DNA of 64,000 nt from positions 1 through 64,000 of the forward strand of contig NZ_CP010683.1 of NCBI RefSeq assembly GCF_002407245.1, written 5' to 3'. Below the pieces are notes generated by a model. The model searched no databases. It had not been told where the DNA came from and was given only the letters and a program-made list of their open reading frames with translations. Origin of the DNA: Phaeobacter piscinae (GTDB lineage Bacteria > Pseudomonadota > Alphaproteobacteria > Rhodobacterales > Rhodobacteraceae). The position numbers and the translations under genes are program-made. Positions 22,740 to 34,487 of this stretch are shown in pieces; position 1 is the first letter of the stretch, and every line of letters begins with the position of its first letter.

Positions 22740-23228
22740 GTGAAAACGATCAAGCGAGCAGTTGCAGTTGCGGGCCTGATGGGCCTGGCCGGTTGCATGG
22801 GAAACACCTCCCAGACCTCGGCCAATATCATGGGGCTGCAATCTATGGCAGGCGTCCAGCGCGCGGCCCAGGCCCAGCCTTCGGAAAAGGATCTCGCCAT
22901 GAGCTGCAGCGAGGTTAAGGAAGAGTTGGGCACGCTCTACGCGCGCAGCGAGGCGATCAACAAGGCAGAACGGAAACGAGAGCGCAAAGCCAACTTGACC
23001 GGCGGCCTCATGGAGGCGGGCCTGTCTGTCCTCGGCGCCGGTGCCATCGCCAACGCGGGATCAGCCCAGTCAATTTCCAACGTGGGCACAGCCACCGCTG
23101 TAGCCGGCACCGCAGCCAGCGGCGTGCGCGGATCCGGCGGCCCTGACGCCCAAACCTACAATACGGCACTAGCGATCGCAGAACGCAGCGCGCTCCTGGA
23201 GCGCGTAAAACTCGCCAACGGCTGCTGA
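22740..23228 (+). CDS. Lipoprotein of unknown function at the end of the tra region
   Basis: A GTG start opens a 162-residue lipoprotein with lipobox LAGC (Cys ~19), a helical charged segment (ARSEAINKAERKRERKANLTGG) and a Gly/Ala-rich middle (GLSVLGAGAIANAGSAQSI) resembling a membrane-active hairpin. The C-terminus is LERVKLANGC. Not recognised by name. Its last codons and downstream leader are repeated in decayed form at 34.4 kb. Confidence 0.65.
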   Translation: MKTIKRAVAVAGLMGLAGCMGNTSQTSANIMGLQSMAGVQRAAQAQPSEKDLAMSCSEVKEELGTLYARSEAINKAERKRERKANLTGGLMEAGLSVLGAGAIANAGSAQSISNVGTATAVAGTAASGVRGSGGPDAQTYNTALAIAERSALLERVKLANGC

Positions 23229-23266: not shown

Positions 23267-23509
23267 AGCCCATGCTTTTAGCGTATGGCGGCACGTGGAT
23301 CCTGAAACCAGAGGACGCAAAGAGAAAATCGCGCACGAGATCGGTTTCTCGACGAACCGCGCAGCGCAGCATCTGCGAACCGGGCGGTCCGGGATGCTCG
23401 CGCTCGCGTCATCAATGCTCTTCTCGGTGGCGGCGGGCTCGAAGCCGACATGCGGCGTCGCGGCGGCAGGTTTGCAGCGCTTCCCGAGTTGGTCACCGCC
23501 GCAGTATGA
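23267..23509 (+). pseudogene. Remnant of a gene 3' end (frameshifted)
   Basis: One frame reads AFSVWRHVDPETRGRKEKIA; near base 23355 the sense continues in another frame (DEPRSAA then RDARARVINALLGGGG) and ends with a clean stop after ALPELVTAAV. That pattern is what a single frameshift in a decayed coding sequence produces. I cannot name the family. The remaining 23510-23861 shows fragments of open frame on the minus strand but nothing recognisable. Confidence 0.35.
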
Positions 23510-23861
23510 CGCCAGCCAGCCCAAACGCGACCTTCATATCAGGCGCAGCGATTGCTTCGCTGCGGGTGCGAAGCATTTTGGCCAATTCCCCAAACCGGCC
23601 ATCCAGCAGGTGGTGGCGGCACCGGCTGATGCTACGCTCCACACCAAGTGACGCGATGCGCAGGAAGCCGCCGCTGCAAAGTTGCGATCCGTCTTCGCCC
23701 TTCGGAGCCTGACCGGCCCAATGCTGCCGTTCATAGAGGATATGGACTGCTGCGATGCGACCTGACATTCTGGACTTTCGCCGCGCATGCAAAGTCTAGC
23801 GGCCAACAGCTCACGATGCTCCAGCAGATCGGCATTGATAATCATGCCTACCAGAACGCAG

Positions 23862-24641
23862 TTAGCTGGCGAAGTTGTCAAATAGAGACAATTGCCGCGT
23901 GGGTAGCCACTGAAATGCAGTGCTTTGGTCCCACTCCAAAGCTCTGGCCCTCATGTCTGCCAGCAACGTTTCTGACAGCCTCTTGCGGGAGAAGCTATTT
24001 GCTTCGTAGGACAATATCTCCTCATTGGAGATGTCCTTAAGCCGAGCTACAACGAATGCAGAAAGCCTTGGCCCGGTCTGAATTTCATCAGACAAGCAAA
24101 TTGTTCGGAGTGTGCGGACTAGTGCGCCAACTGCGTTCGGGTTGTCCTCCAGTATGAGCTCCAAATACTTCTGAGAAAGATCAGAAAAATAATCCTGGCC
24201 GTGGTGAAGCGAACTAGAGCGCCAGTCATATAGAATTGCGTCCCAATTGAAGAAGGTGGTTTCAAGAAGGGACAAAGGACTGTGAGCTTCGACTACACCT
24301 TCTGCAAAAGCCCAAGTTCGCGAGACCTCCCACACATCAAAGTTCCATCGCCCAAAACGAACACGATGCCCACCAAACTTGTTTTGAACTGCTTCGTACC
24401 GCCCCAAGGTGTCCATGAAGGTTTCACGATCATGAACCTGAACAACCGTATCTACATCGCTGGCGAAGCTCGGCGCACCTAAAAGGGAGATGTCCCTGAG
24501 CGCTCCACCGAAGATAAAAATATCTGCACAAACAGATACTTCGTCAATGAAGCGCCCAACGGCACTACGTTCAGCAATCGGCTCATCAAAGAAGCGACGG
24601 ATACGCTTCTTGGCGGCTTTCTGGTCAAGTGCAGGTTTCAT
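23862..24641 (-). CDS. Pol-beta-type nucleotidyltransferase of the accessory operon
   Basis: A 259-residue soluble protein. The head resembles the tRNA nucleotidyltransferase/poly(A) polymerase fold: FIFGGALRDISLLG (GG-x-x-RD) at ~43, SDVDTVV (DxD metal ligands) at ~62, and a third acidic strand NFDVWEV at ~100. No CCA-enzyme tail is evident, and the C-terminal half is helical. It lies eight bases after the dGTPase-like gene, last in a four-gene minus-strand operon. Such enzymes transfer nucleotides to RNA or protein; with a dNTP hydrolase upstream, a defence or toxin-like role is plausible but inferred. Confidence 0.75.
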   Translation of the reverse strand: MKPALDQKAAKKRIRRFFDEPIAERSAVGRFIDEVSVCADIFIFGGALRDISLLGAPSFASDVDTVVQVHDRETFMDTLGRYEAVQNKFGGHRVRFGRWNFDVWEVSRTWAFAEGVVEAHSPLSLLETTFFNWDAILYDWRSSSLHHGQDYFSDLSQKYLELILEDNPNAVGALVRTLRTICLSDEIQTGPRLSAFVVARLKDISNEEILSYEANSFSRKRLSETLLADMRARALEWDQSTAFQWLPTRQLSLFDNFAS

Positions 24642-24649
24642 CTTTTTCC

Positions 24650-26092
24650 TTAGCAGCGAAGCTCTCTAAGTTCCCGCTCGAAGCTTAGTGCGAAGCCGTC
24701 TGTCATACCAGAGATCATGTCTGTGAGCAATTGACAGCGGCGATAACCCAACGGAAGGTCTTCGTTCGGGCTTTCGAAAACTCGCCGGTAATTCTCCGAG
24801 ATGCGTCCGTAGGCGTACTTCTCAAAAGGAGTTCCGGGATGTCCTTTGGTCTCCTTCTGGGGGTCGCCACGGCTAACGATGGCAGGCCAAAGCATATCCA
24901 TGATTGAATGGATAACTTTGTGCCCTTCCAGTTCCAGCTCAAGAACACTTCGGTGCTTGTAGGCGTTCTCGAACGCAAAACCTTTAAGTTTTTTGCAAAG
25001 CAATGCAGCACTCGACACGGAAATGAGATCGTCTTTCAAAGCGCCTTTCTCGATATCGGATTGCCTCTCTAGGAAAGCTTCAATGACCGCAGAAACCATG
25101 TTTCCGATGGCAAACACCCGGAACATCTGGGTTGAAAGATCATTTACTTCGTTCGGCGATAGTTTCGCGTCTTTGTGCTTTTTGTGCTGTGCGTCCGCTC
25201 GCTCGCAGACATCTTTGATCACAGCGTCGGTTTCAGGTTCTCCGTCCGCCCCAGCTTCGAGATAGCTGATCAAATCTCTGTAGGAAACCAGCCCTTTCTT
25301 TACCGCATCTTCCACATCCAAAACCGAATAAGCAATGTCGTCGCTTGCTTCCATCAAAAACGTTAACGGATGCCGCACCCCCTCTTTCAGACCGGTCTCT
25401 TTCCAAACGTCCGCCACCACATCCAGTTCGGAATGAAAGCACCCGAACTTTTTGGTCGCAATATTCGACTTATCCTGTTGCTCCGAGGTCCCAGGGTACT
25501 TCATTAGGGCAGCCAACGCGCCGCACGTAAGGTTGAGCCCAAAGTTGTCGTTCATAATCTGGAGCTTGGTGAGCACGCGAAGCGCTTGGGCATTACCTTC
25601 AAACTTTTCAAAGTCCCGACGCATACGCAACTTCACATCGGAAGAAATATCCAGGTTCTCGCAATCAAGGAACTTAAATGCCTTAGCCTCGTTTTTTTTG
25701 AACCAGTCTCCTATGGCATACTCACCTTGATGGCCGAATGGCGGGTTGCCGATATCATGCGCGAGCCCCACTGTCGCGAGAATTGAGGGCAGATCGCGCT
25801 TATGCTCAGCTAATTTAAAATTGCCCCCCCCGCGATGAGCGAGTGAAACACCAATACTCCGTGCAATATTGGACACCTCATGGGAATGAGTAAGGCGCGT
25901 TCTAACGCTGTCGTTTTTCTCCAAAGGGAATACTTGGGTTTTGTCCGCTAACCGCCGAACAGGAGTGCTAAAAAGAACTCGGTCATAATCGCGCTCAATT
26001 TCCGTTCTATCGCCGCCTGCATTTAGCGGCTGCCCGTCTTTCTTGTGCATGTCCTTACGCCGGGTTGCGGACATAAGTTTTTTCCAATCCAT
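24650..26092 (-). CDS. dgt: dGTPase-like HD-domain dNTP triphosphohydrolase
   Basis: 480 residues of the deoxyguanosinetriphosphate triphosphohydrolase family, which cleaves dNTPs to nucleosides and triphosphate. The ATG at 26092 (MDWKKLMSATRRK) follows GGAG, and residues 1-70 match the usual start (ERDYDRVLFSTPVRRLADKTQVFPL). Metal ligands: His in RTRLTHSHEV, His-Asp in LAHDIGNPPFGHQGE, and the late Asp in SDDIAYSVLDVEDA. All are intact. dGTPases occur as housekeeping enzymes and as anti-phage dNTP-depleting effectors; the operon context favours the latter by inference. Gap to TcmP is 38 bp. Confidence 0.88.
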   Translation of the reverse strand: MDWKKLMSATRRKDMHKKDGQPLNAGGDRTEIERDYDRVLFSTPVRRLADKTQVFPLEKNDSVRTRLTHSHEVSNIARSIGVSLAHRGGGNFKLAEHKRDLPSILATVGLAHDIGNPPFGHQGEYAIGDWFKKNEAKAFKFLDCENLDISSDVKLRMRRDFEKFEGNAQALRVLTKLQIMNDNFGLNLTCGALAALMKYPGTSEQQDKSNIATKKFGCFHSELDVVADVWKETGLKEGVRHPLTFLMEASDDIAYSVLDVEDAVKKGLVSYRDLISYLEAGADGEPETDAVIKDVCERADAQHKKHKDAKLSPNEVNDLSTQMFRVFAIGNMVSAVIEAFLERQSDIEKGALKDDLISVSSAALLCKKLKGFAFENAYKHRSVLELELEGHKVIHSIMDMLWPAIVSRGDPQKETKGHPGTPFEKYAYGRISENYRRVFESPNEDLPLGYRRCQLLTDMISGMTDGFALSFERELRELRC

Positions 26093-26130
26093 TACATTCT
26101 CCAAAATATTCGGTTGCCATCCGCTTCGGA

Positions 26131-27342
26131 TCAAAGAAAGTGAAATGACCTTTGAGGCGTCAGTCGTATTGTGTCTGTTCGTTTTATCATCTGTGGCTTC
26201 CGCCGTCTTCCGCCCGTTGCGGTCAAAACCTCTACTTCTGGTGATTTGATTAGCGCGCTGTTGAGATCGTCGGAGTGCGCAGGGGTTTGGTTGTATGTTT
26301 GATCGAAAAAGTCTGCGACGGATAGAGTAGCCTCAGGAGTGCAATCTCTGAGGAACTTAGGTATGTCACCCAAAAGCTCTTCTCTTGCTCCTCGCCGCGA
26401 GTTCGCATCAAACAGGTACAGCGAAGCATCCTCGATAGAGTTATACCTCAACATTTGTAGACCGGACCGACCGACATGCGCTTGCGAGTTCTTTTTCCGG
26501 TGCAATATATCGTTGTAAACCTGTCGGGCCCGGAAAGAATTTGCGAAATGTACTAGCCAGTACTCCCACCCACTTTGGTTGTTAATCGAGAACGGGCTCA
26601 CGAAGTTTGCCAGCGTTTGAAACTCCTCAAATACAACCTTTTCGACGGCCGCAAGCCACTCCTTCTTGGTCTTGTGTAGGGAGATTTCTGAAATCTGTCC
26701 GTCAAACAATCTCTTGTCTTGCCTTCTCGTGGGACTGATGAATGCCAAGAAGGATTTGATAGAAAATGTTAGGAACACTTCGGAAGATCGCGTCAACGAA
26801 AGAGCTGTGCGAAGATGGCCTTCCGATACATCAGCATGACCATACTGATCGAGGTTGAAGATGGTGTTTCGAACCCTTGAGGCCAAAACCATTTGCGCAA
26901 TACTTGAGAGATTTCTCCCGAAATCGCCTTCGAAGTACTTCACGCGAAACATGGCACCGTTGTGCTCGTCTTGGTGTTCCAGCAAGAATGTATTAACACT
27001 ACTTTGCAGGGCCAGTATAGCAACAGGGGAAAGATCATTGAAATACATGAAGAACTCGAAGGAAATCGGTTTGAACCCGTCTATTTTCCTTCTGAGATTC
27101 ACCTCGGCGCTCACTGATTTAAGCGTTTGAAGCACCATCAGGGGGGAACCGAGCGTACCACATTCGTATGCGCCGGCCCCGCAGAACCCATCCACAAAAG
27201 ACAGCCGAAATCTCTCTTGCTGAGGCAAACTGCATCTTACGCGAACGTACTCGTGAAGGTACTCTTTAATAATCTCAAGTTTGATCTTGGAGTGCGGCCC
27301 AATCTTAGCACCGTTTTCCCAGTCATACTGTCTCTTAACCAT
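26131..27342 (-). CDS. tcmP: Three-Cys-motif partner protein TcmP
   Basis: A 403-residue soluble protein recognisable as TcmP, the family found beside three-Cys-motif DUF5131 proteins. A methyltransferase-like nucleotide-binding loop, FVDGFCGAGAYECGTLGSPL (about residues 48-67), is followed by a second acidic strand (FNLDQYGHADVS, ~168). The C-terminal half is helical and basic. GGAG lies nine bases before the ATG. It sits 21 bp after the DUF5131 gene, so the two are surely co-expressed. Function is unknown; the Rossmann-like motif suggests a SAM-dependent reaction on nucleic acid or nucleotide, which is inference. Confidence 0.85.
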   Translation of the reverse strand: MVKRQYDWENGAKIGPHSKIKLEIIKEYLHEYVRVRCSLPQQERFRLSFVDGFCGAGAYECGTLGSPLMVLQTLKSVSAEVNLRRKIDGFKPISFEFFMYFNDLSPVAILALQSSVNTFLLEHQDEHNGAMFRVKYFEGDFGRNLSSIAQMVLASRVRNTIFNLDQYGHADVSEGHLRTALSLTRSSEVFLTFSIKSFLAFISPTRRQDKRLFDGQISEISLHKTKKEWLAAVEKVVFEEFQTLANFVSPFSINNQSGWEYWLVHFANSFRARQVYNDILHRKKNSQAHVGRSGLQMLRYNSIEDASLYLFDANSRRGAREELLGDIPKFLRDCTPEATLSVADFFDQTYNQTPAHSDDLNSALIKSPEVEVLTATGGRRRKPQMIKRTDTIRLTPQRSFHFL

Positions 27343-27363
27343 GCTGAAGGCGCTCCAGTAACC

Positions 27364-28149
27364 CTATGGAGACACCGAAAATGTTGGCATTTCTTCCCAA
27401 ACTTTCCCCCGAAACAGCCGCCCGTTGGCTTTCTTAGAGCGTTTCTTGTTGTCTTTTCCCCACGTTCCCCATTGCTTGAAAAAAAACGCAGTTCCGTAGC
27501 GCTTGCACAAAGAATGGATTTCATCAATCCATTCCTCTTTGATAGGCCGCGCTTGCGACCCACTTTCGCCTCCAACGATGGCCCAGTGTATATTGCTTAG
27601 ATCGACCTCTCCGACCGGCGCGATTAACGGTTCAAAGGAAATAAATCGGATTATCGCAGGGGTGACAGAAAGGGCGTCAATTCTTGCGACTGTTTCTGCG
27701 CTTTCAACACTAGTTCCCAGCCAAACATTTGGAAGAACCGCATCGAGATGATCTCTCGTGAACTCAAGCATACGCTCAGGTCTTTTAGTCAAGATCTGAT
27801 ACTGGTGGCGTGGCGTTTTCTTCATTACTTGCCAAACTCTTTCGACAAAATCGAATGGAACTCTTTCATGAAAGAGATCGCTCATGGAGTTAACAAAAAT
27901 TTTTCGGGGCTTCCTCCATTTCAGTGGTGCCTCTAAAGACCTTTCGTCCAGATTGATGGCGCCTGTCCAAACGGTTCTCTTACCCGAGCGCCGCGCGAGC
28001 CCTTGATACTTCTCCATACCCATTGCTTCCAGCCGAAGAGCCATATGCATCGCATAACAGTTCGTGCATCCGCTCGACGCCGCTGCACACCCTGCAACTG
28101 GGTTCCAAGTTGTGTCAGTCCATTCAATCTCTGACAAAACAGTCTCCAT
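27364..28149 (-). CDS. DUF5131 (phage Gp37/Gp68-type) three-Cys-motif protein
   Basis: A 261-residue protein of the DUF5131 family. Near the N-terminus WTDTTWNPVAGC is followed by a C-x6-C-x2-C cluster (Cys21, Cys28, Cys31) like a radical-SAM iron-sulfur site, then NCYA. Barrel-type segments follow (FVNSMSDLFHE, YQILTKRPERM, VWLGTSVES, ISFEPLI, WAIVGGESG), and the end is FFFKQWGTWG. First gene of a four-gene operon. The family occurs in phages and in bacterial genomic islands next to TcmP; the reaction is not known to me. Confidence 0.88.
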   Translation of the reverse strand: METVLSEIEWTDTTWNPVAGCAAASSGCTNCYAMHMALRLEAMGMEKYQGLARRSGKRTVWTGAINLDERSLEAPLKWRKPRKIFVNSMSDLFHERVPFDFVERVWQVMKKTPRHQYQILTKRPERMLEFTRDHLDAVLPNVWLGTSVESAETVARIDALSVTPAIIRFISFEPLIAPVGEVDLSNIHWAIVGGESGSQARPIKEEWIDEIHSLCKRYGTAFFFKQWGTWGKDNKKRSKKANGRLFRGKVWEEMPTFSVSP

Positions 28150-28164
28150 GGGTCAAAAAGCCAT

Positions 28165-28183
28165 CTATATCTCCGAGATATAG
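28165..28183. promoter_or_regulatory. Palindrome 15 bp upstream of the DUF5131 operon
   Basis: CTATATCTC-C-GAGATATAG is a perfect 9-bp inverted repeat with one central base, lying just before the first codon of the four-gene operon. It fits a dimeric repressor operator or a 5' hairpin in the message. No regulator gene is present in the cluster. The remaining upstream gap to 28669 shows no gene I can support. Confidence 0.5.
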
Positions 28184-28669
28184 CGCGAGAGCGGAAACCC
28201 TGCATCCCTGACAAGAGGTGGATTCTGATCGCTGAAGCGTACCTCCCGGAGAGGACGACGGTGCCATGTTCGCAAACAGGAACCAAGTCGCACGCGCGAA
28301 CAATCGCCGAATGCCGCCGAAGTTGCAAGTTTGTTGACAGGTCGTCGAACAAGTGAAAGACTTGCCCATCGTCGTCAAAACGGATCGGTCTCGTGTTGGG
28401 AATGCAAGCGTTGGCGTCGCAGGATGGATCGGTCGCGTCCTATCACGGTCTGAGGGACTCCTCTCAGCCCGCTTTGAATGTCAGCTTCCGACCAGGAATT
28501 CTTCGATACCGCTTCTGCGGCGAATTTCGGCAATCGCTCTTACTTCATGCGAACCAGCCGTGGATATGCGACAAGACGGAGGTCTGCTTCGGGCTGGCAG
28601 CGGCCAACTGCAGCTGCAGCATCTCGTCTGATGGGAATCGGTGGCTCTGGGCTCTCCTGTAACCTTCCC

Positions 28670-28754
28670 TGGAACCTTCGCCGCGATCTGCGCGGATGGC
28701 AGGTTCAGGAAATCACGCCGTTCGCTGCGCCTTGTTCGAACTGGAAGGGCGCGG
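28670..28754 (+). repeat. Direct repeat flanking the efflux gene, copy 1
   Basis: An 85-base stretch, including GCAGGTTCAG and TTCGAACTGGAAGGGCGCGG, recurs at 30227-30311 in the same orientation with about five mismatches. The two copies bracket the MFS transporter gene and its attenuator. The repeat is noncoding and does not look like a known IS end. Confidence 0.7.
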
Positions 28755-28793
28755 ACAAAGAGTGAATTCGCTGCGACCGCATGAACGACCGCT

Positions 28794-29996
28794 TTACTCA
28801 CTCGCGCATTGCATTTCTCTTTGCTTGAGCCACGATGCCCAGATGGCGAAACCCAAGCCCAAGCCCGTTGCCACAAGCATCAATGTAAGCAGCGTTTGCG
28901 CGGCATTGGTTTCGACCACGGCTGTGCCTGTCGCCGCAGTCAAAATGGCACCTCCAGCAACAATCAACGCGCCACTTAGCCCTGCGGCACTGCCCGCGAG
29001 TTCCGGTCGCACGGACATCGCGCCAGCATTGCTACCGGGCATTGTAATCCCATTTCCAAGGCCCACGAATATCGTGCTCGCAAAGAAGATTTGTGGCGAT
29101 GTGATGCCCAAAGCCAAGACGAACAGACCTCCAACAAGCCCGATACAGGCTATGATCCGGCCCGCAATCATCATGGTTGTTGGCTCAAACCCTTTGCCAA
29201 AACGCCCGGCAATGAAGCCACCCAACATGAACCCGACCGTTATTGTTCCTATGTAGAATCCAAGCTCCGCCGTGGAAATTTCAAATACGGTTTGAGCCAC
29301 AAGCGGAGCGCCCGTCAGGAAGATGTAGAACGCACCAACCGAGAAAGTGCCGCACAGTGCGTAAGCCCAGAACAGCGGTTCGCGCAAAAGAGATGTCGTG
29401 CCAAGCACTGGCGTGCCGGGATCACTGTCCCGATCCCGCTTGGTTTCGCCCAAGTCCAGCCAACACAAAATTAGCAGGCCAAATCCTGAAGCGGCAAAGA
29501 AAGCGAAGATGGATCGCCACCCCAGAAATGTGTCCAGCACACCTCCTAACATCGGTCCAACCATCGGAGCGATTGCCATGGTCATTCCGATGTAACCGAT
29601 CAAGCTCACAGCCTCTCGCTCTGATCTTGTGTCCCGGACGATGGCGAGAGACAGGGCGTATCCGCCGATTATTCCGCCTTGAAGCATCCGGGAAAACAAA
29701 AATACCTCAATGCTTTGAGCAAGAACGCAGCCCACCGACGCAAATGCAAAGACCAGCAACGCTCCCAAAAGGACTGGCCGTCTGCCAATCCGGTCTGACA
29801 GAGGGCCAATGATCAGTTGAATGATGGCAGTTATCGCAAGATACCCGGAGACCGCCCAGCTCACCGTCCCATAGTCTGTTTCAAGATCGACAGCGATGTT
29901 CGCCAATGAAGGCAAAAACATATTGAGAGACATGGGCGAAAACCCAGTCAGAAGTATCAGCGTGAGCAAATGCGGCGGTGCTTTTGGATAGTACAT
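28794..29996 (-). CDS. Bcr/CflA-family multidrug efflux MFS transporter
   Basis: A 400-residue inner-membrane transporter of the drug:H+ antiporter (12-span) type. The MFS loop motif is GPLSDRIGRRPVLLGALL at ~65-82, and the antiporter motif region GYIGMTMAIAPMVGPMLGG lies at ~130. Bcr/CflA proteins export drugs such as bicyclomycin and chloramphenicol; the substrate here is unknown. The gene is preceded by a leader peptide, antiterminator and terminator, so expression is probably induced by ribosome stalling. It is flanked by 85-bp direct repeats, suggesting it moved as a unit. Confidence 0.88.
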   Translation of the reverse strand: MYYPKAPPHLLTLILLTGFSPMSLNMFLPSLANIAVDLETDYGTVSWAVSGYLAITAIIQLIIGPLSDRIGRRPVLLGALLVFAFASVGCVLAQSIEVFLFSRMLQGGIIGGYALSLAIVRDTRSEREAVSLIGYIGMTMAIAPMVGPMLGGVLDTFLGWRSIFAFFAASGFGLLILCWLDLGETKRDRDSDPGTPVLGTTSLLREPLFWAYALCGTFSVGAFYIFLTGAPLVAQTVFEISTAELGFYIGTITVGFMLGGFIAGRFGKGFEPTTMMIAGRIIACIGLVGGLFVLALGITSPQIFFASTIFVGLGNGITMPGSNAGAMSVRPELAGSAAGLSGALIVAGGAILTAATGTAVVETNAAQTLLTLMLVATGLGLGFAIWASWLKQREMQCASE

Positions 29997-30020
29997 TTTG
30001 AAGTTCTCAGCTCTAGAAAC

Positions 30021-30047
30021 AAAAAAGCCCCCGAAAATTTCGGAGGC
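30021..30047 (-). terminator. Attenuator terminator in the efflux-gene leader
   Basis: Reading the minus strand, GCCTCCGA, a five-base loop and TCGGGGGC form an 8-bp GC-rich stem (one T-G pair) followed directly by six T residues. It lies 25 bp before the transporter start codon, in the transcript leader, so it would stop transcription before the gene unless prevented. Confidence 0.75.
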
Positions 30048-30092
30048 GCATGGAAACGGTTATGGAAAACCCTTATCGGACCATGCACCTCC
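30042..30092 (-). promoter_or_regulatory. Antiterminator pairing in the efflux-gene leader
   Basis: On the minus strand GGAGGTGCATGG (30092-30081, inside the leader-peptide codons) can pair with CCATGCGCCTCC (30053-30042): 12 consecutive pairs with one G-U. The second arm includes the first six bases of the terminator stem, so the two structures exclude each other. A ribosome stalled early in the leader peptide would leave the first arm free and favour read-through. Confidence 0.7.
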
Positions 30093-30123
30093 TGCTGACT
30101 ACGACGACGAATTTTACGGACAT
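30073..30123 (-). CDS. Leader peptide MSVKFVVVVSRRCMVR of the efflux gene
   Basis: A 16-codon frame with AAGGAG seven bases upstream of its ATG lies between a promoter-like sequence and the attenuator. Four consecutive valines are followed by SRRCM; the AGG AGG TGC ATG codons form one arm of the antiterminator. The arrangement is that of leader peptides controlling antibiotic-resistance genes, where drug-bound ribosomes stall. Not an entry I recognise by name. Confidence 0.7.
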   Translation of the reverse strand: MSVKFVVVVSRRCMVR

Positions 30124-30144
30124 GGCTTTTCTCCTTTGAAGCCG

Positions 30145-30173
30145 AGCCTAGTCAGACAGTTCTTCTATGGCAA
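30145..30173 (-). promoter_or_regulatory. Candidate promoter of the attenuated efflux gene
   Basis: On the minus strand TTGCCA, a 17-bp spacer, then TAGGCT, about 9 bp before the leader's ribosome-binding site. The spacing is ideal and the -35 is good; the -10 matches consensus only partly. Confidence 0.4.
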
Positions 30174-30226
30174 TGTAAAAAGCCGCCATTTATGCGTCGC
30201 GCAGAATCTGGAAATCTGGGCTCTCT

Positions 30227-30311
30227 TGGAACCTTGGCCGCGATCTGCACGGATGGCAGGTTCAGGGAATCACGCCGTTCGTTGCGCCTTTTTCGAACTG
30301 GAAGGGCGCGG
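30227..30311 (+). repeat. Direct repeat flanking the efflux gene, copy 2
   Basis: Counterpart of the repeat at 28670-28754, same orientation. It lies just upstream of the efflux promoter. From here to 30820 no gene is supported; the sequence is GC-rich and looks like decayed intergenic DNA, then becomes AT-richer before the caspase gene. Confidence 0.7.
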
Positions 30312-30820
30312 GACCTTGCTGCCGTTCGCTGCAGGCGCAGCAAGAACGACCTGGGGCGGTCGCACTGCGCAGGAAGTGACCTTTGCAAAGTCGACAGATC
30401 TTGCGGCTTTGCGGGCGATCCATGCCCCAGGCGCAATAAGAAGAGCTGACCTTCGCCGCAGGTGCAGCTGCCGACCACCTTCGAACGTCAGCGGCGCCGG
30501 ACTTTCCAGACTTTCGCTGCAACTGAAATTTAGGCAGCTCCAAAGGTCAGCATTGGGCTAACTGTCTCTCGGCATGTATGGAAAACTTGCGCTGAATACA
30601 GCGCTAGGTATTCGTGCAGGCTTGGCTCCATTCCCGTACCTCACATGACCAATGTCGAAAACACAGAGGTGGGAAAATCAGGTCTTCATGATCAGATTTG
30701 TAGTTGTTCCCTAGTGGAACCGTGCGTCGACGCGGTCTACAATCGTCTTCCAACGGTGGCGACATTTCCAAAGCACTCTACTATTCTGTGAAGCGAATTC
30801 TGTTCTTACAGTTGGTAATC

Positions 30821-32620
30821 ATGATGATCCTTTTGTCGCGCTTGGCAGCATCCATAGCTTGTATAGTCATGTGTTCGTCTGCTCTGATGGCGGAGAATGA
30901 AACCGAGCGGCGTGTTGCTCTGGTAATCGGGAATTCGAGTTATCAGCACGTTACTCGGTTGCCTAACCCTGAGAACGATGCAAGAGACATCGCAAATGTC
31001 CTGAAGAAAATCGGATTTGAAGTCACATCTGGTTTCGACTTGGATTTCCGCTCGATGCGCTTGGCAGTTCGTGATTTTTCCGAGCAAGCTGAAGAGGCTG
31101 ATATTGTTGTGGTTTACTATGCTGGCCATGGCATAGAAGTTGGCGGTGAGAACTATCTTATTCCAGTTAACGCCGAGCTAAAACGCGATCGTGACGTAGA
31201 TTTTGAGGCCATTCGACTACAGGCATTGCTTGCATCTCTAGAGACCGTTGATGGGTTGAAAATCGTTCTCGTTGACGCGTGCCGAAACAACCCATTTTCA
31301 GTGCAAATGGCTAGTCGGAATGCAACTCGATCGATCGGCCGCGGCCTAGCCAGAATTGAGCCAAGCGGCGTCCTTGTCGGGTATGCAGCCAAAGGAGGAA
31401 CGTTTGCATTGGATGGCAAGGGGCGTAACAGCCCGTATGCCTCAGCGCTTCTCAAGCACCTAACAGAACCCGGTCTGGAACTTGGAAAGCTGTTCAGGAA
31501 GGTAAGGGACACCGTCTATGCAGCAACAGGAGGAGAGCAAGAGCCTTTTGTATACGGATCACTGCCGGGAAGGGATATCTTTCTCGTTCCGCCCAAAGTA
31601 GAGGTCCCAGCAGAAGCACCAGTCCGAACAGCGGCACTGCCGGGAACTGACAGCAAGATTCAGAAGGATTACTCTCGAGCTGTATCCATGAACAGCGTTT
31701 GGGGGTGGAAGAATTTTGTAACAAAGTATTCAGACATGCCCGACCATTGGCTTGTAATGCTTGCGGAGGAAAGGCTGGCAAATGCTGTAGCTGAACGAGA
31801 CGTCCGTAGGGGGTTTTCTGAGCGGGAGCCCTGGTTGACTTCAGCAATAGGTTCAGATGGCAAAACCGTAAGCCTGTCACGTAATGATAGAGTTCTTGTG
31901 CAAAAAGCCCTGAATATGATGGGCTTTGACGTGGGGTCCTTTGATGGACAATTTGGTCCCAGAACCAAGCAAGCAATTGCAGCCGCCAGAATTCGAGCAG
32001 GTCTTTTTCGTGGTGTTAAGGTCGACCATTCCTTTCTGAGAGTCCTGCCGAACGTCCACGCTATCGAAGCGCTGCAAACCGACAAGGCCAAGATTTACTC
32101 TACTGATGTCTTTTCTGAGGACCTTGAGCCACGGTTGCGCAAGGCTCTTAGCGTCTACTCCCATATACCAATAAAATTCGATTACTTTAGAGGGCACCTA
32201 TACCTTGCTGTGCAAACGACCTCAGGTGATTGGGACTATGCAAATAAAACGGCTCAGAGAGCTGGTGGGTATCTCGCAACCATCAGTAGCTCAGAAGAAA
32301 ACAACTTTCTGCTGAAGCTCTTTTCGACTGACGAGCGCTTCATCACAGGGTCTGGCGACGGCGGGCTGCATGGTCCAATGATTGGTCTTTTCCAAGCCGA
32401 CCGCAGCCGCGAGCCGAGTGGAGGTTGGGTTTGGGTGACTGGTGAACCCATGACGTTTCGCGGATGGAGTCCCGGGAACCCCGACAACAGTAGAAATCGA
32501 CAACACTGGGCAAGATTCTACAGGTCGCGAAACTTTGCGGGCACGAGTGTTCCTGTCAAGTACTGGGACGACACTACTTCTTCGCTATGGAGTGGTGGGT
32601 ATCTTGTCGAGATAGAATGA
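30821..32620 (+). CDS. Secreted caspase-like protease with C-type-lectin-like domain
   Basis: About 599 residues from the ATG at 30821 (a longer in-frame opening exists from 30704). The N-terminus is a signal peptide (LAASIACIVMCSSALMA). Residues ~27-260 are a caspase/metacaspase p20-type domain: RVALVIGNSSYQ, catalytic His in VVYYAGHGIEVGGENYL, catalytic Cys in VLVDACRNNPF. Residues ~350-400 hold a peptidoglycan-binding-like repeat (VQKALNMMGFDVGSFDGQFGPRTKQAI). The C-terminal ~145 residues form a C-type-lectin-like domain (GGYLATISSSEEN, GGWVWVTGEPMTFRGWSPGNP). A secreted or periplasmic protease with a ligand-binding tail; target unknown. Base composition is AT-richer than the tra region. 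Confidence 0.85.
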   Translation: MMILLSRLAASIACIVMCSSALMAENETERRVALVIGNSSYQHVTRLPNPENDARDIANVLKKIGFEVTSGFDLDFRSMRLAVRDFSEQAEEADIVVVYYAGHGIEVGGENYLIPVNAELKRDRDVDFEAIRLQALLASLETVDGLKIVLVDACRNNPFSVQMASRNATRSIGRGLARIEPSGVLVGYAAKGGTFALDGKGRNSPYASALLKHLTEPGLELGKLFRKVRDTVYAATGGEQEPFVYGSLPGRDIFLVPPKVEVPAEAPVRTAALPGTDSKIQKDYSRAVSMNSVWGWKNFVTKYSDMPDHWLVMLAEERLANAVAERDVRRGFSEREPWLTSAIGSDGKTVSLSRNDRVLVQKALNMMGFDVGSFDGQFGPRTKQAIAAARIRAGLFRGVKVDHSFLRVLPNVHAIEALQTDKAKIYSTDVFSEDLEPRLRKALSVYSHIPIKFDYFRGHLYLAVQTTSGDWDYANKTAQRAGGYLATISSSEENNFLLKLFSTDERFITGSGDGGLHGPMIGLFQADRSREPSGGWVWVTGEPMTFRGWSPGNPDNSRNRQHWARFYRSRNFAGTSVPVKYWDDTTSSLWSGGYLVEIE

Positions 32621-32678
32621 CTTTTATACTCCAGGGCATAAATTCGTGTGAAAGAATACCTTTTAAGGTTTCACTTCA

Positions 32679-33035
32679 CTAAGTCACTTCGTATCCGTCG
32701 CCAAAATATATGTGCCCTATTTTCACTCCCCCCTTCTTCTTTTGTGAGGCCTTGCCTATTTTCCCCTGTTCGTCTCGGTGCGGATCATGAAAGTGTTCAA
32801 AATAGATCTCACCTTTTTTGCCATTTTTAATGTGATTCTCCTTTAAGGTGTAGTCGCCGTCCTTGTTTTTCCTACCTCCACCAAGTGCCTTTGAGAGCGC
32901 CTTTGCATAGGCCTTAGTGCAATAAACGCTCTTTCCGCTCTTGAGGCGTCGAATAGCCGCAGGCTTATCGATTTCATTACCATCTGATTTCAAATTTTTC
33001 CCAGCTAGGCGCACTGGCTTGTAGTCCTTCCCCAT
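32679..33035 (-). CDS. Small basic His-rich protein, possible toxin-like domain
   Basis: From an ATG at 33035 (GGAG eight bases upstream) this encodes 118 residues, strongly basic, ending with EHFHDPHRDEQGKIG and GHIYFGDGYEVT. The clustered His/Asp and terminal GHIYFGD remind me of C-terminal toxin or nuclease modules of polymorphic toxins, but no family is certain. It converges on the caspase-like gene with a 58-bp gap containing an imperfect hairpin. Confidence 0.5.
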   Translation of the reverse strand: MGKDYKPVRLAGKNLKSDGNEIDKPAAIRRLKSGKSVYCTKAYAKALSKALGGGRKNKDGDYTLKENHIKNGKKGEIYFEHFHDPHRDEQGKIGKASQKKKGGVKIGHIYFGDGYEVT

Positions 33036-33197
33036 GATCACACTCCGATACCCTCTGAAAAATAGCGCTCTCCTTAAGCAAAGTGTAATGCAGGCAACTG
33101 GCCCTTCAAGTTGCAAGGCCACCTTTTCAAGGTCCCCCTTCGAATGGGGTCACGTCCGTCAAGCTGGTATAATTTCCCAGATGGCCTGAGGTCATGG

Positions 33198-33581
33198 TCA
33201 GGCGGCTTGGGATGATAGGCTGAGAATGGGATCGGTCTCCTCTGCGTCGATTTCGGCGAAGGCCTCGACCATCATGTAGTAGCTGGCGGTTTGCCATTCG
33301 TCATTCTGCTCGAACAGCACCGCGCCGATCAGGCGGATGATGGACGCCTCGTTCGGAAAGACCCCGACGACATCGGCGCGCCGCTTCACTTCCTTGTTCA
33401 GGCGTTCGATGGGATTGGTGCTATTCAATTTGGTGCGTTGCTGGCGCGGGAAGGCCATATAGGCCAGCACATCGTGCTCGCTTTCGTCCATAAGAGCGGT
33501 CGGCTTGGGCCATCGCCCGCGGAGTTGGTCGGCCACGCGGCTGCCAGGTTTCCCCGGCGGATGCGCGGTCAGGCTGATCAA
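33198..33581 (-). pseudogene. IS256-family (mutator) transposase, C-terminal fragment
   Basis: Reads as the last ~125 residues of an IS256-type transposase (KLNSTNPIERLNKEVKRRADVVGVFPNE, then DEWQTASYYMMVEAF). The catalytic DDE region is absent; the upstream end is cut near 33581, where IS5-like sequence begins. Inactive remnant. Confidence 0.85.
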
Positions 33582-33602
33582 AAGCCTGCCGGATTTCCGA
33601 TG

Positions 33603-34177
33603 CCGCCATTCAGTTCTGTCTGTCGATCAAAGTGCTGTTCAAGCTTCCACTACGCAAGACCGCCGGGATGGTGGCGAGCTTGTTGAAGCTGGCGGGGCTG
33701 GACTGGCCGGTGCCGGATTTCTCCACCCTGTGCCGCAGGCAGAAGATCCTTGCCGTTCAGGTCCCGTATCGCCGCGCGGATGGCCCGCTGAACCTGCTCG
33801 TGGACAGCACCGGGATCAAGTTCTTCGGCGATGGCGAATGGCAGGCACGCAAGCACGGCGTGCAGGGGCGACGCCAGTGGCGCAAAGTACACTTGGCCAT
33901 GGACCCGGCCACATCCGACATCCGTGCTGTGGAGTTCACGCCAAGCCGCGACGGCGACAACCCCGTGCTGCCCGACCTGCTGGGCCAGATCCCCGAGAGC
34001 GAACTGATCGGCACAGTGACCGCGGATGGTGCATACGACACGCGTCGCTGCCACAAGGCTATCATCGAGCGCGACGCAGTTCCGATCATCCCGATCCGCA
34101 AGAACGGGCGGCTATTGAAAGAAGACTGCCCGGCGGCACGCGTCCGCAACGATACCCTGCGCGCGACGCGATACTAA
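33603..34177 (+). pseudogene. IS5-family transposase fragment
   Basis: Starts mid-protein (QFCLSIKVLFKLPLRKTAG), with a DDE-type core: LNLLVDSTGIKFFGDGEW and GTVTADGAYDTRRCHKAI. It stops after RNDTLRATRY, so both the N-terminus and the region with the final catalytic Glu are missing. It abuts the IS256 remnant on the left. Confidence 0.85.
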
Positions 34178-34389
34178 CTGCCGCGATAATCGTACAGGCA
34201 ATGGGATTTCAAAGCCGTATCTTGGATCACTCCGGCTTCGCTCTGAAGACAATCGCTCGCCCAATTGCCGGGGTAGGGAGGACAGGGCAAGACAGCGCCC
34301 AGCCGCATCTCCACGGTTTCATTATTCCCGGTCCGAGCTCTGGTCTCCTTGAGCCGGAGGCCAGAACTTTCTGTCCGCAGGGAAATCGC

Positions 34390-34487
34390 CTGTACATCCA
34401 GAAAAGCGGCAGGTCTCGAGCGTGTGTAACTTGCCAACAGCTGCTGACGTCCCCGCAAAAGCCTGCCGGAATAGAGGAAACCACGAG
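34390..34487 (+). repeat. Decayed copy B of the lipoprotein tail and leader
   Basis: Aligns with 23169-23266: GAGCG, CTTGCCAACAGCTGCTGA against CTCGCCAACGGCTGCTGA, then CCCCGCAA, then the identical AGAGGAAACCACGAG (34473-34487). Here the reading frame is broken by a TAA within the tail. It marks the right edge of the accessory island. 34178-34389 holds no supported gene. Confidence 0.6.

What the first reader, a model, noticed from the sequence alone, without database searches (positions are those of the whole stretch)
23862..28149. Four-gene operon: DUF5131 three-Cys protein, TcmP, dGTPase-like hydrolase and pol-beta nucleotidyltransferase
Seen: four minus-strand genes with gaps of 21, 38 and 8 bp. 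The Cys cluster (C-x6-C-x2-C), the methyltransferase-like loop of TcmP, the HD metal ligands and the GG..RD/DxD nucleotidyltransferase motif are all intact. Known: DUF5131 and TcmP are a recurring pair of unknown function, and dGTPases can be anti-phage dNTP-depleting enzymes. Inference: this is a modification- or nucleotide-directed defence system in which DUF5131/TcmP senses or modifies nucleic acid and the dGTPase and nucleotidyltransferase act as effectors. I know of no described system with this exact gene set.
Basis: partly seen in the sequence, partly recalled or inferred. Interest (0 to 1): 0.85.

Follow-up and report, generated by a model that had tools for sequence, protein, structure and literature searches.

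The report
Clover phage-defence operon with two extras
Two of these four bacterial genes are a recently described virus-defence pair that destroys a DNA building block when a virus attacks, and the other two, of unknown role, look like nucleic-acid-modifying enzymes that have travelled with that pair between distantly related bacteria.

Summary
The dGTPase and nucleotidyltransferase are not an undescribed combination: they are CloA and CloB of the Clover anti-phage system (preprint PMC12265719). The dGTPase scores 467 bits against solved Salmonella CloA, the next dGTPase 195, and keeps allosteric residues (N75, Q311, K256) that seven control dGTPases lack; the nucleotidyltransferase is homologous to CloB of an E. 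coli H5 record. By homology CloB is a suppressor, not a second effector. What the preprint's text does not mention is the upstream pair, DUF5131 (probable radical-SAM enzyme, nearest solved fold spore photoproduct lyase) and TcmP (nearest fold RlmJ, an RNA adenine methyltransferase). The four-gene set recurs in six other genomes of five families, one of them split over contig ends. Linked TcmP genes are one clade whose branching equals CloA's, while DUF5131 was exchanged at least once. Most likely: a Clover variant that gained a TcmP/DUF5131 module once and then spread as one cassette, here on a conjugative Phaeobacter plasmid. What TcmP/DUF5131 do is inferred, not shown.

The parts
27364..28149 (-). 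DUF5131 (phage Gp37/Gp68 family), probable radical-SAM enzyme with C-x6-C-x2-C
26131..27342 (-). TcmP, methyltransferase-like protein with a C-terminal winged-helix-like region
24650..26092 (-). CloA, Clover dGTPase (ATG start at 26092, as in the RefSeq record)
   Evidence: 467 bits to Salmonella CloA chains 9p8s/9p8t; allosteric residues; annotated start
23862..24641 (-). CloB, Clover nucleotidyltransferase (p3diT synthase by homology)
   Evidence: 30% identity over 254 aa, E 2.5e-38, to the CloB of an E. coli H5 record; family profile gives that CloB 225 bits
23267..34414 (.). about 11-kb cargo insert in a conjugative-plasmid backbone that holds the operon; an imperfect direct repeat of about 73 bases is found at its two borders
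   Evidence: backbone collinear without the insert in two Leisingera plasmids

Best explanation
It is a four-gene variant of the Clover anti-phage system. Core, by close homology to tested members: CloA senses the rise of dTTP that phage infection causes and then destroys dGTP, starving phage replication; CloB makes the thymidine dinucleotide p3diT, which sits in a neighbouring pocket of CloA and keeps it off in healthy cells. Added layer, inferred: DUF5131 (radical SAM) and TcmP (methyltransferase fold) form a nucleic-acid-modifying pair that is also found without Clover, in several cases beside other defence genes; an ancestor of this lineage placed it upstream of cloA once, and the four genes have since moved between bacterial orders as one cassette, with TcmP loyal to CloA and DUF5131 replaceable. 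I think the pair most likely acts in parallel on nucleic acid as a second layer, not as an obligatory part of the dTTP/p3diT switch. The confidence given is for Clover identity plus single recruitment of TcmP; rivals 1 and 2 below concern what the pair does and overlap with it.
For: CloA: 467 bits to Salmonella CloA, next dGTPase 195. p3diT-site residues R29, R34, D37, R38, F41, N75, N181, Q311, R314 and dTTP-site residues R47, D61, Q172, K256, S418, N420, T449 kept; Q311 in 15 of 16 Clover rows and 0 of 7 control dGTPases. CloB. CloB homologues lie directly downstream of a CloA or CloA fragment in 18 of 18 loci and in both further loci. Four-gene order in L015, L017, L019, L021, L023, plus Sphingomonas SRS2 split over two contig ends. 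Linked TcmP one clade, 100/100; four-gene CloA one clade, 87/99; identical branching order, though one TcmP node has only 85/77. Purifying selection on all four. Folds of TcmP and DUF5131.
Against: Co-inheritance does not prove joint function. DUF5131 is not loyal. Eleven of 18 Clover genomes searched show no TcmP and one has it unlinked, so Clover does not need it; TcmP/DUF5131 pairs elsewhere had no dGTPase beside them (0 of 8 plasmid loci and 0 of 10 genome loci examined). Window CloA differs at dTTP-site positions A444 (M) and Y452 (F) and at p3diT-site T25 (A); several contact residues (R38, R314, R47, T449) occur in all 7 controls as well and so say nothing. TcmP lacks the DPPY motif of N6-adenine methyltransferases; Foldseek ranks small-molecule methyltransferases first for it, and gives no match at E <= 0.001 for DUF5131. 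Pfam finds no radical-SAM family in DUF5131. Of 10 larger flanking ORFs of four-gene loci only 1 had a PADLOC match.
Confidence: 0.8

Rival explanations
1. Two independent defence systems that merely sit together: Clover, plus the stand-alone TcmP/DUF5131 candidate system (PADLOC PDC-M30/M41), linked by defence-island clustering and hitch-hiking on the same cassette, with no biochemical contact.
For: TcmP/DUF5131 and CloA/CloB each occur without the other in many genomes; the pair sits beside other defence genes in several plasmids (CBASS, type IIG restriction, BovA, AbiE by annotation, a helicase that I infer to be Hna).
Against: One TcmP clade only, same branching order as CloA, same gene order with short gaps over five families; a loose neighbourhood should be re-made many times.
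Confidence: 0.4
2. TcmP/DUF5131 is a functional part of the Clover switch: it senses infection or tailors or removes the thymidine dinucleotide p3diT, or modifies CloA, and so sets the threshold.
For: TcmP is loyal to CloA; the nearest solved fold of DUF5131 is spore photoproduct lyase, solved with a dinucleoside spore photoproduct (titles; that this is a thymine pair is recalled), and p3diT is a thymidyl-thymidine.
Against: The same DUF5131 family occurs without Clover, and a stand-alone-type DUF5131 replaced the Clover-linked one in Amylibacter; tested Clover systems need only CloA and CloB.
Confidence: 0.15
3. Ordinary metabolism: a housekeeping dGTPase operon with an RNA-modification pair, not defence.
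For: All four genes are under purifying selection.
Against: A second dGTPase lies on another contig, C1, of the host genome; sporadic presence (CloB in 3 of 390 genomes of the order, the window's own included); cargo of a conjugative plasmid; nearest characterised relatives are tested anti-phage proteins.
Confidence: 0.04

Closest known systems
Clover (CloA-CloB) anti-phage system, preprint PMC12265719 (seen: abstract, part 1 of 8 of the text, sections 3, 4, 5, 7 and 23)
   Same: dGTPase followed directly by a Pol-beta-type nucleotidyltransferase; catalytic, p3diT-site and most dTTP-site residues; CloB acidic triad
   Different: Two upstream genes (TcmP, DUF5131) not mentioned in the preprint's main text; Y452F, A444M, T25A in CloA; only 30% identity of CloB to the E. 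coli H5 CloB
PADLOC candidate systems PDC-M30 / PDC-M41 (TcmP + DUF5131)
   Same: Both proteins match these models
   Different: Here joined to CloA-CloB; PDC models are candidates. The one passage seen reports prediction of PDC-M30 in 32 P. aeruginosa strains, 68.8% of them phage-resistant, not a test of function (PMC10855318)
Stand-alone anti-phage dGTPase (NF041026)
   Same: HD dGTPase fold and motif
   Different: 203 bits against a cut-off of 400; CloA carries allosteric sites and a CloB partner
Spore photoproduct lyase
   Different: C-x6-C-x2-C, not C-x3-C-x2-C (lyase motif recalled); 10-12% identity; no sequence-level match
RlmJ, 23S rRNA A2030 N6-methyltransferase
   Different: No DPPY; the invariant D165-Q166 is followed by Y or C in the rows shown; extra C-terminal region; no sequence-level match; not among the 50 listed Foldseek rows

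Membership tests
Clover | dNTPase gene directly followed by an NTase gene | tested here: met
   8-base gap; adjacent CloA or CloA fragment in 18 of 18 other loci
Clover | CloA HD motif and HE dyad | tested here: met
   H69, H117, D118, H126, E129, D242; these are also in all 7 control dGTPases
Clover | CloA p3diT pocket | tested here: met
   9 of 10 listed residues kept, T25 is A
Clover | CloA dTTP pocket | tested here: met
   7 of 9 listed contact residues kept (plus R66); A444 (main-chain contact) is M, Y452 is F
Clover | CloB acidic triad and homology to a tested CloB | tested here: met
   D62, D64, D102 invariant; E 2.5e-38 to the CloB of NZ_CP010169.1, E. coli strain H5; that this is the tested locus is inferred from the strain name and 85% CloA identity to Salmonella CloA
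Clover | CloB makes p3diT; CloA is activated by dTTP; phage restriction | not testable with these tools
   needs bench work
Stand-alone anti-phage dGTPase NF041026 | score over the curated cut-off | tested here: not met
   203 of 400 bits
TcmP family TIGR04474 | score over the curated cut-off | tested here: met
   180 bits, cut-off 53
Radical SAM superfamily (DUF5131) | three-Cys cluster in a partial TIM-barrel fold | tested here: met
   C21, C28, C31 invariant; the top rows are radical-SAM enzymes, though Foldseek alone gave no match at E <= 0.001 and Pfam no radical-SAM family
Radical SAM superfamily (DUF5131) | [4Fe-4S] and SAM-dependent chemistry | not testable with these tools
   needs purified protein
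Spore photoproduct lyase | C-x3-C-x2-C motif (recalled) | tested here: not met
   C-x6-C-x2-C in the window and all 36 aligned DUF5131
RlmJ-type N6-adenine methyltransferase | [DNS]PP[YFW] catalytic motif (recalled) | tested here: not met
   D165-Q166 invariant in 44 rows, then Y or C in the rows shown

The most novel reading that the evidence does not exclude
The DUF5131/TcmP pair acts on the Clover signal itself: a radical-SAM enzyme with a spore-photoproduct-lyase-like fold that binds thymine dinucleotides, working with an RlmJ-like methyltransferase, modifies or removes p3diT (or the thymidines of phage DNA) on infection. This would be radical-SAM editing of an immune nucleotide signal, and would turn the dTTP-only Clover trigger into a two-input switch.
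Probability: 0.07. Interest if true: 0.92.

Novelty: new variant of a known kind. Interest (0 to 1): 0.6.

Why it matters
Clover is a recent example of immunity restrained by an inhibitory nucleotide. A four-gene form that has kept a methyltransferase-fold partner through transfer between bacterial orders suggests a further input or a second layer, and makes a testable handle on TcmP/DUF5131, a widespread pair of unknown function that is found beside several other defence systems.

Tried and rejected
Rejected: the nucleotidyltransferase as a CCA-adding enzyme or a second effector. Its profile finds CCA/poly(A) polymerases only at E 0.05 or worse, whereas the E. coli H5 CloB is a clear homologue. 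Rejected: a stand-alone anti-phage dGTPase and the sole dGTPase of its genome. Rejected: spore photoproduct lyase or RlmJ as family membership (motifs not met); kept only as fold resemblance.

Led nowhere: CloB in viral contigs (7 stretches matched a pattern, none a relative); promoter and terminator scan (no more than the shuffles); PDB by sequence for TcmP and DUF5131 (a biotin synthase at E 0.31 and chance rows); PADLOC on 10 larger flanking ORFs of four-gene loci (one mad2 match of 43.5 bits) and Pfam on 8 such ORFs and 2 of two-gene loci (integrases on both sides of L017, otherwise ordinary genes or nothing); a first paper search swamped by unrelated meanings of TcmP. A residue named Q377 in the preprint is E in the PDB chain at that number; I did not resolve this.

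Rows left out: CloA of L006, L016, L018, L020, L025 and L044 (truncated, interrupted or cut) were not in the residue table or CloA tree. The CloA tree used 4 of the 7 controls. The first TcmP and DUF5131 trees (21 rows each) gave TcmP one clade at 88/83; the second added Sphingomonas SRS2 and left out distant rows (L013, L038, L040, L041 for TcmP; L013, L040, L041 for DUF5131). L014, L037 and L039 were in neither tree. L023 DNA has masked bases inside cloB.
Full report
What is there. The window is the start of plasmid pP18_c of Phaeobacter piscinae P18, 103,699 bases, typed as conjugative. The record calls them phage Gp37/Gp68 family protein, TcmP, dGTP triphosphohydrolase and hypothetical protein. 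They lie in an insert of about 11 kb: two Leisingera plasmids carry the same transfer-gene backbone with the genes on both sides of the insert next to each other, and an imperfect direct repeat of about 73 bases is found at its two borders. The operon is poorer in G+C (0.48-0.50) than the transfer-gene backbone before it (mostly 0.58-0.62).

The dGTPase and nucleotidyltransferase are Clover. A search for dGTPase, nucleotidyltransferase and anti-phage listed 6 papers, of which I opened one, the preprint PMC12265719 (seen: abstract, part 1 of 8 of the text, and sections 3, 4, 5, 7 and 23). It shows that CloA is a dGTPase switched on by dTTP and that CloB makes p3diT, a thymidine dinucleotide that holds CloA off; mutating the CloB active site was toxic to the cells. 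The window dGTPase scores 467 bits against the solved Salmonella CloA; the next dGTPase scores 195; identity is 50% over 486 columns. On an alignment of 16 Clover rows and 7 control dGTPases (six from plasmids and the one on contig C1 of the window's genome), the window keeps 9 of 10 listed p3diT contacts and 7 of 9 dTTP contacts. Q311 occurs in 15 of 16 Clover rows and 0 of 7 controls; N75 in 13 of 14 rows with a letter and 0 of 7; K256 in 15 of 16 and 0 of 7. Other contacts are shared with controls (R38, R314, R47 and T449 in 7 of 7) and say nothing. Exceptions in the window are T25A, A444M and Y452F. The nucleotidyltransferase is 30% identical over 254 residues (E 2.5e-38) to the CloB of NZ_CP010169.1, E. 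coli strain H5, and the family profile gives that CloB 225 bits. The preprint tested a system from E. coli H5; that this is the same locus I infer from the strain name and 85% CloA identity to Salmonella CloA. The catalytic residues are invariant in 36 of 36 rows.

How often the parts meet. CloB relatives were found in 16 loci of genome contigs and 2 of an order sample besides the window; in 18 of 18 a CloA or CloA fragment lies directly upstream, as in two more from a phylum sample. Complete DUF5131-TcmP-CloA-CloB order is seen in 5 of the 18 (Rhodovulum, Maritalea, Hoeflea, Amylibacter, Robiginitomaculum). In Sphingomonas sp. SRS2, DUF5131, TcmP and the start of CloA stand at one contig end, and the rest of CloA with CloB at another; the start of CloA there runs into a stop, so whether the gene is merely split by the assembly or interrupted is open. 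Of 18 Clover genomes searched whole (those of 14 of the 16 genome-contig loci and of 4 sample loci; L016 and L018 were not searched), 6 have TcmP beside Clover, 1 has it elsewhere and 11 show none. In the other direction, TcmP occurs in 11 of 385 genomes of a class sample; in the 10 besides the window's own, DUF5131 is adjacent in 9 and a dGTPase in 0, within held flanks of about 1.5 kb or less. CloB is in 1 of 72,556 plasmid records, this one; TcmP is in 60, this one included, of which I opened 8 others, none with a dGTPase within 6 kb.

One recruitment, then travel as a unit. In the CloA tree the seven four-gene members are one clade (87/99); in the TcmP tree the seven linked TcmPs are one clade (100/100; 88/83 in the first tree with six linked and more distant rows); the branching order is the same in both, one TcmP node being weak (85/77). 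It is not the species order: Amylibacter (Rhodobacterales) branches outside Maritalea and Hoeflea (Hyphomicrobiales), so the cassette has moved between orders (orders recalled; families). Pairwise distances of TcmP and CloA over six loci correlate at 0.98; of DUF5131 and CloA at 0.87. DUF5131 behaves differently: holding the linked ones together as one clade is rejected (p-AU 0.027), and the Amylibacter one groups with the DUF5131 of a Roseibium plasmid whose opened stretch has no dGTPase (99/98). So TcmP is the loyal partner and DUF5131 can be exchanged. All four genes are under purifying selection against Rhodovulum and Maritalea (dN/dS 0.05-0.12); synonymous change to Hoeflea was saturated.

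Mechanism. Shown elsewhere and transferred by homology: dTTP-triggered dGTP destruction by CloA, and restraint by CloB's p3diT. Inferred: TcmP/DUF5131 is a second, nucleic-acid-directed layer that became part of the cassette. The pairing of a spore-photoproduct-lyase-like fold with a thymidine dinucleotide signal is striking, but the exchange of DUF5131 for a stand-alone type speaks against a DUF5131 specialised for p3diT.

Print status. Besides the Clover preprint, searches for TcmP or DUF5131 (393 papers, 30 listed, none of those with DUF5131), three-Cys-motif partner (3 papers; passages of 2 read), p3diT/CloB (the preprint alone), radical SAM with phage and TcmP terms (none) and spore photoproduct lyase with phage terms (20 papers, 10 listed, not opened) showed no description of the four-gene set. 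The library lacks most subscription journals. The preprint's main text holds none of DUF5131, TcmP, radical SAM, methyltransferase or Gp37; its figures and supplements were not read, and its Extended Data Fig. 1a legend says that effectors adjacent to CloB were classified, so the authors may have seen this arrangement.

Noticed in passing
window 23267-34414: About 11-kb cargo insert absent from two Leisingera plasmids with the same backbone; an imperfect direct repeat of about 73 bases, matching the end of the gene at 22740-23228 and the spacer after it, is found at its two borders. No integrase gene is annotated inside.
   Followed up: partly
window 28670-28754 and 30227-30311: A direct repeat of 85 bases, 94% identical, flanks the MFS efflux gene at 28794-29996; window 28750-30190 is 89% identical to DNA of a Roseobacter denitrificans plasmid.
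   Followed up: no
window 30821-32620: Caspase-family protein with peptidoglycan-binding and lectin-like regions in the same insert; only a weak PADLOC caspase match.
   Followed up: no
L066 6254-11882 (Sinorhizobium meliloti pSymA 1248000-1264000): A DUF5131-TcmP pair lies beside a second, short TcmP and a helicase 94% identical to the PDC-S28 helicase of L009, probably Hna.
   Followed up: partly
L052 3680-5909 (E. coli SMS-3-5): A Clover-like pair between flhB and cheZ: the dGTPase is 62% identical to Salmonella CloA, with a CloB homologue next to it.
   Followed up: no
L021 and L012: The DUF5131 of the Amylibacter four-gene operon groups with a Roseibium plasmid copy that has no dGTPase beside it, a sign of gene replacement inside the operon.
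   Followed up: yes
L016: A contig binned as Campylobacterales carries a CloB 85% identical to the Phaeobacter one behind a short CloA remnant; probably a misbinned alphaproteobacterial contig.
   Followed up: no
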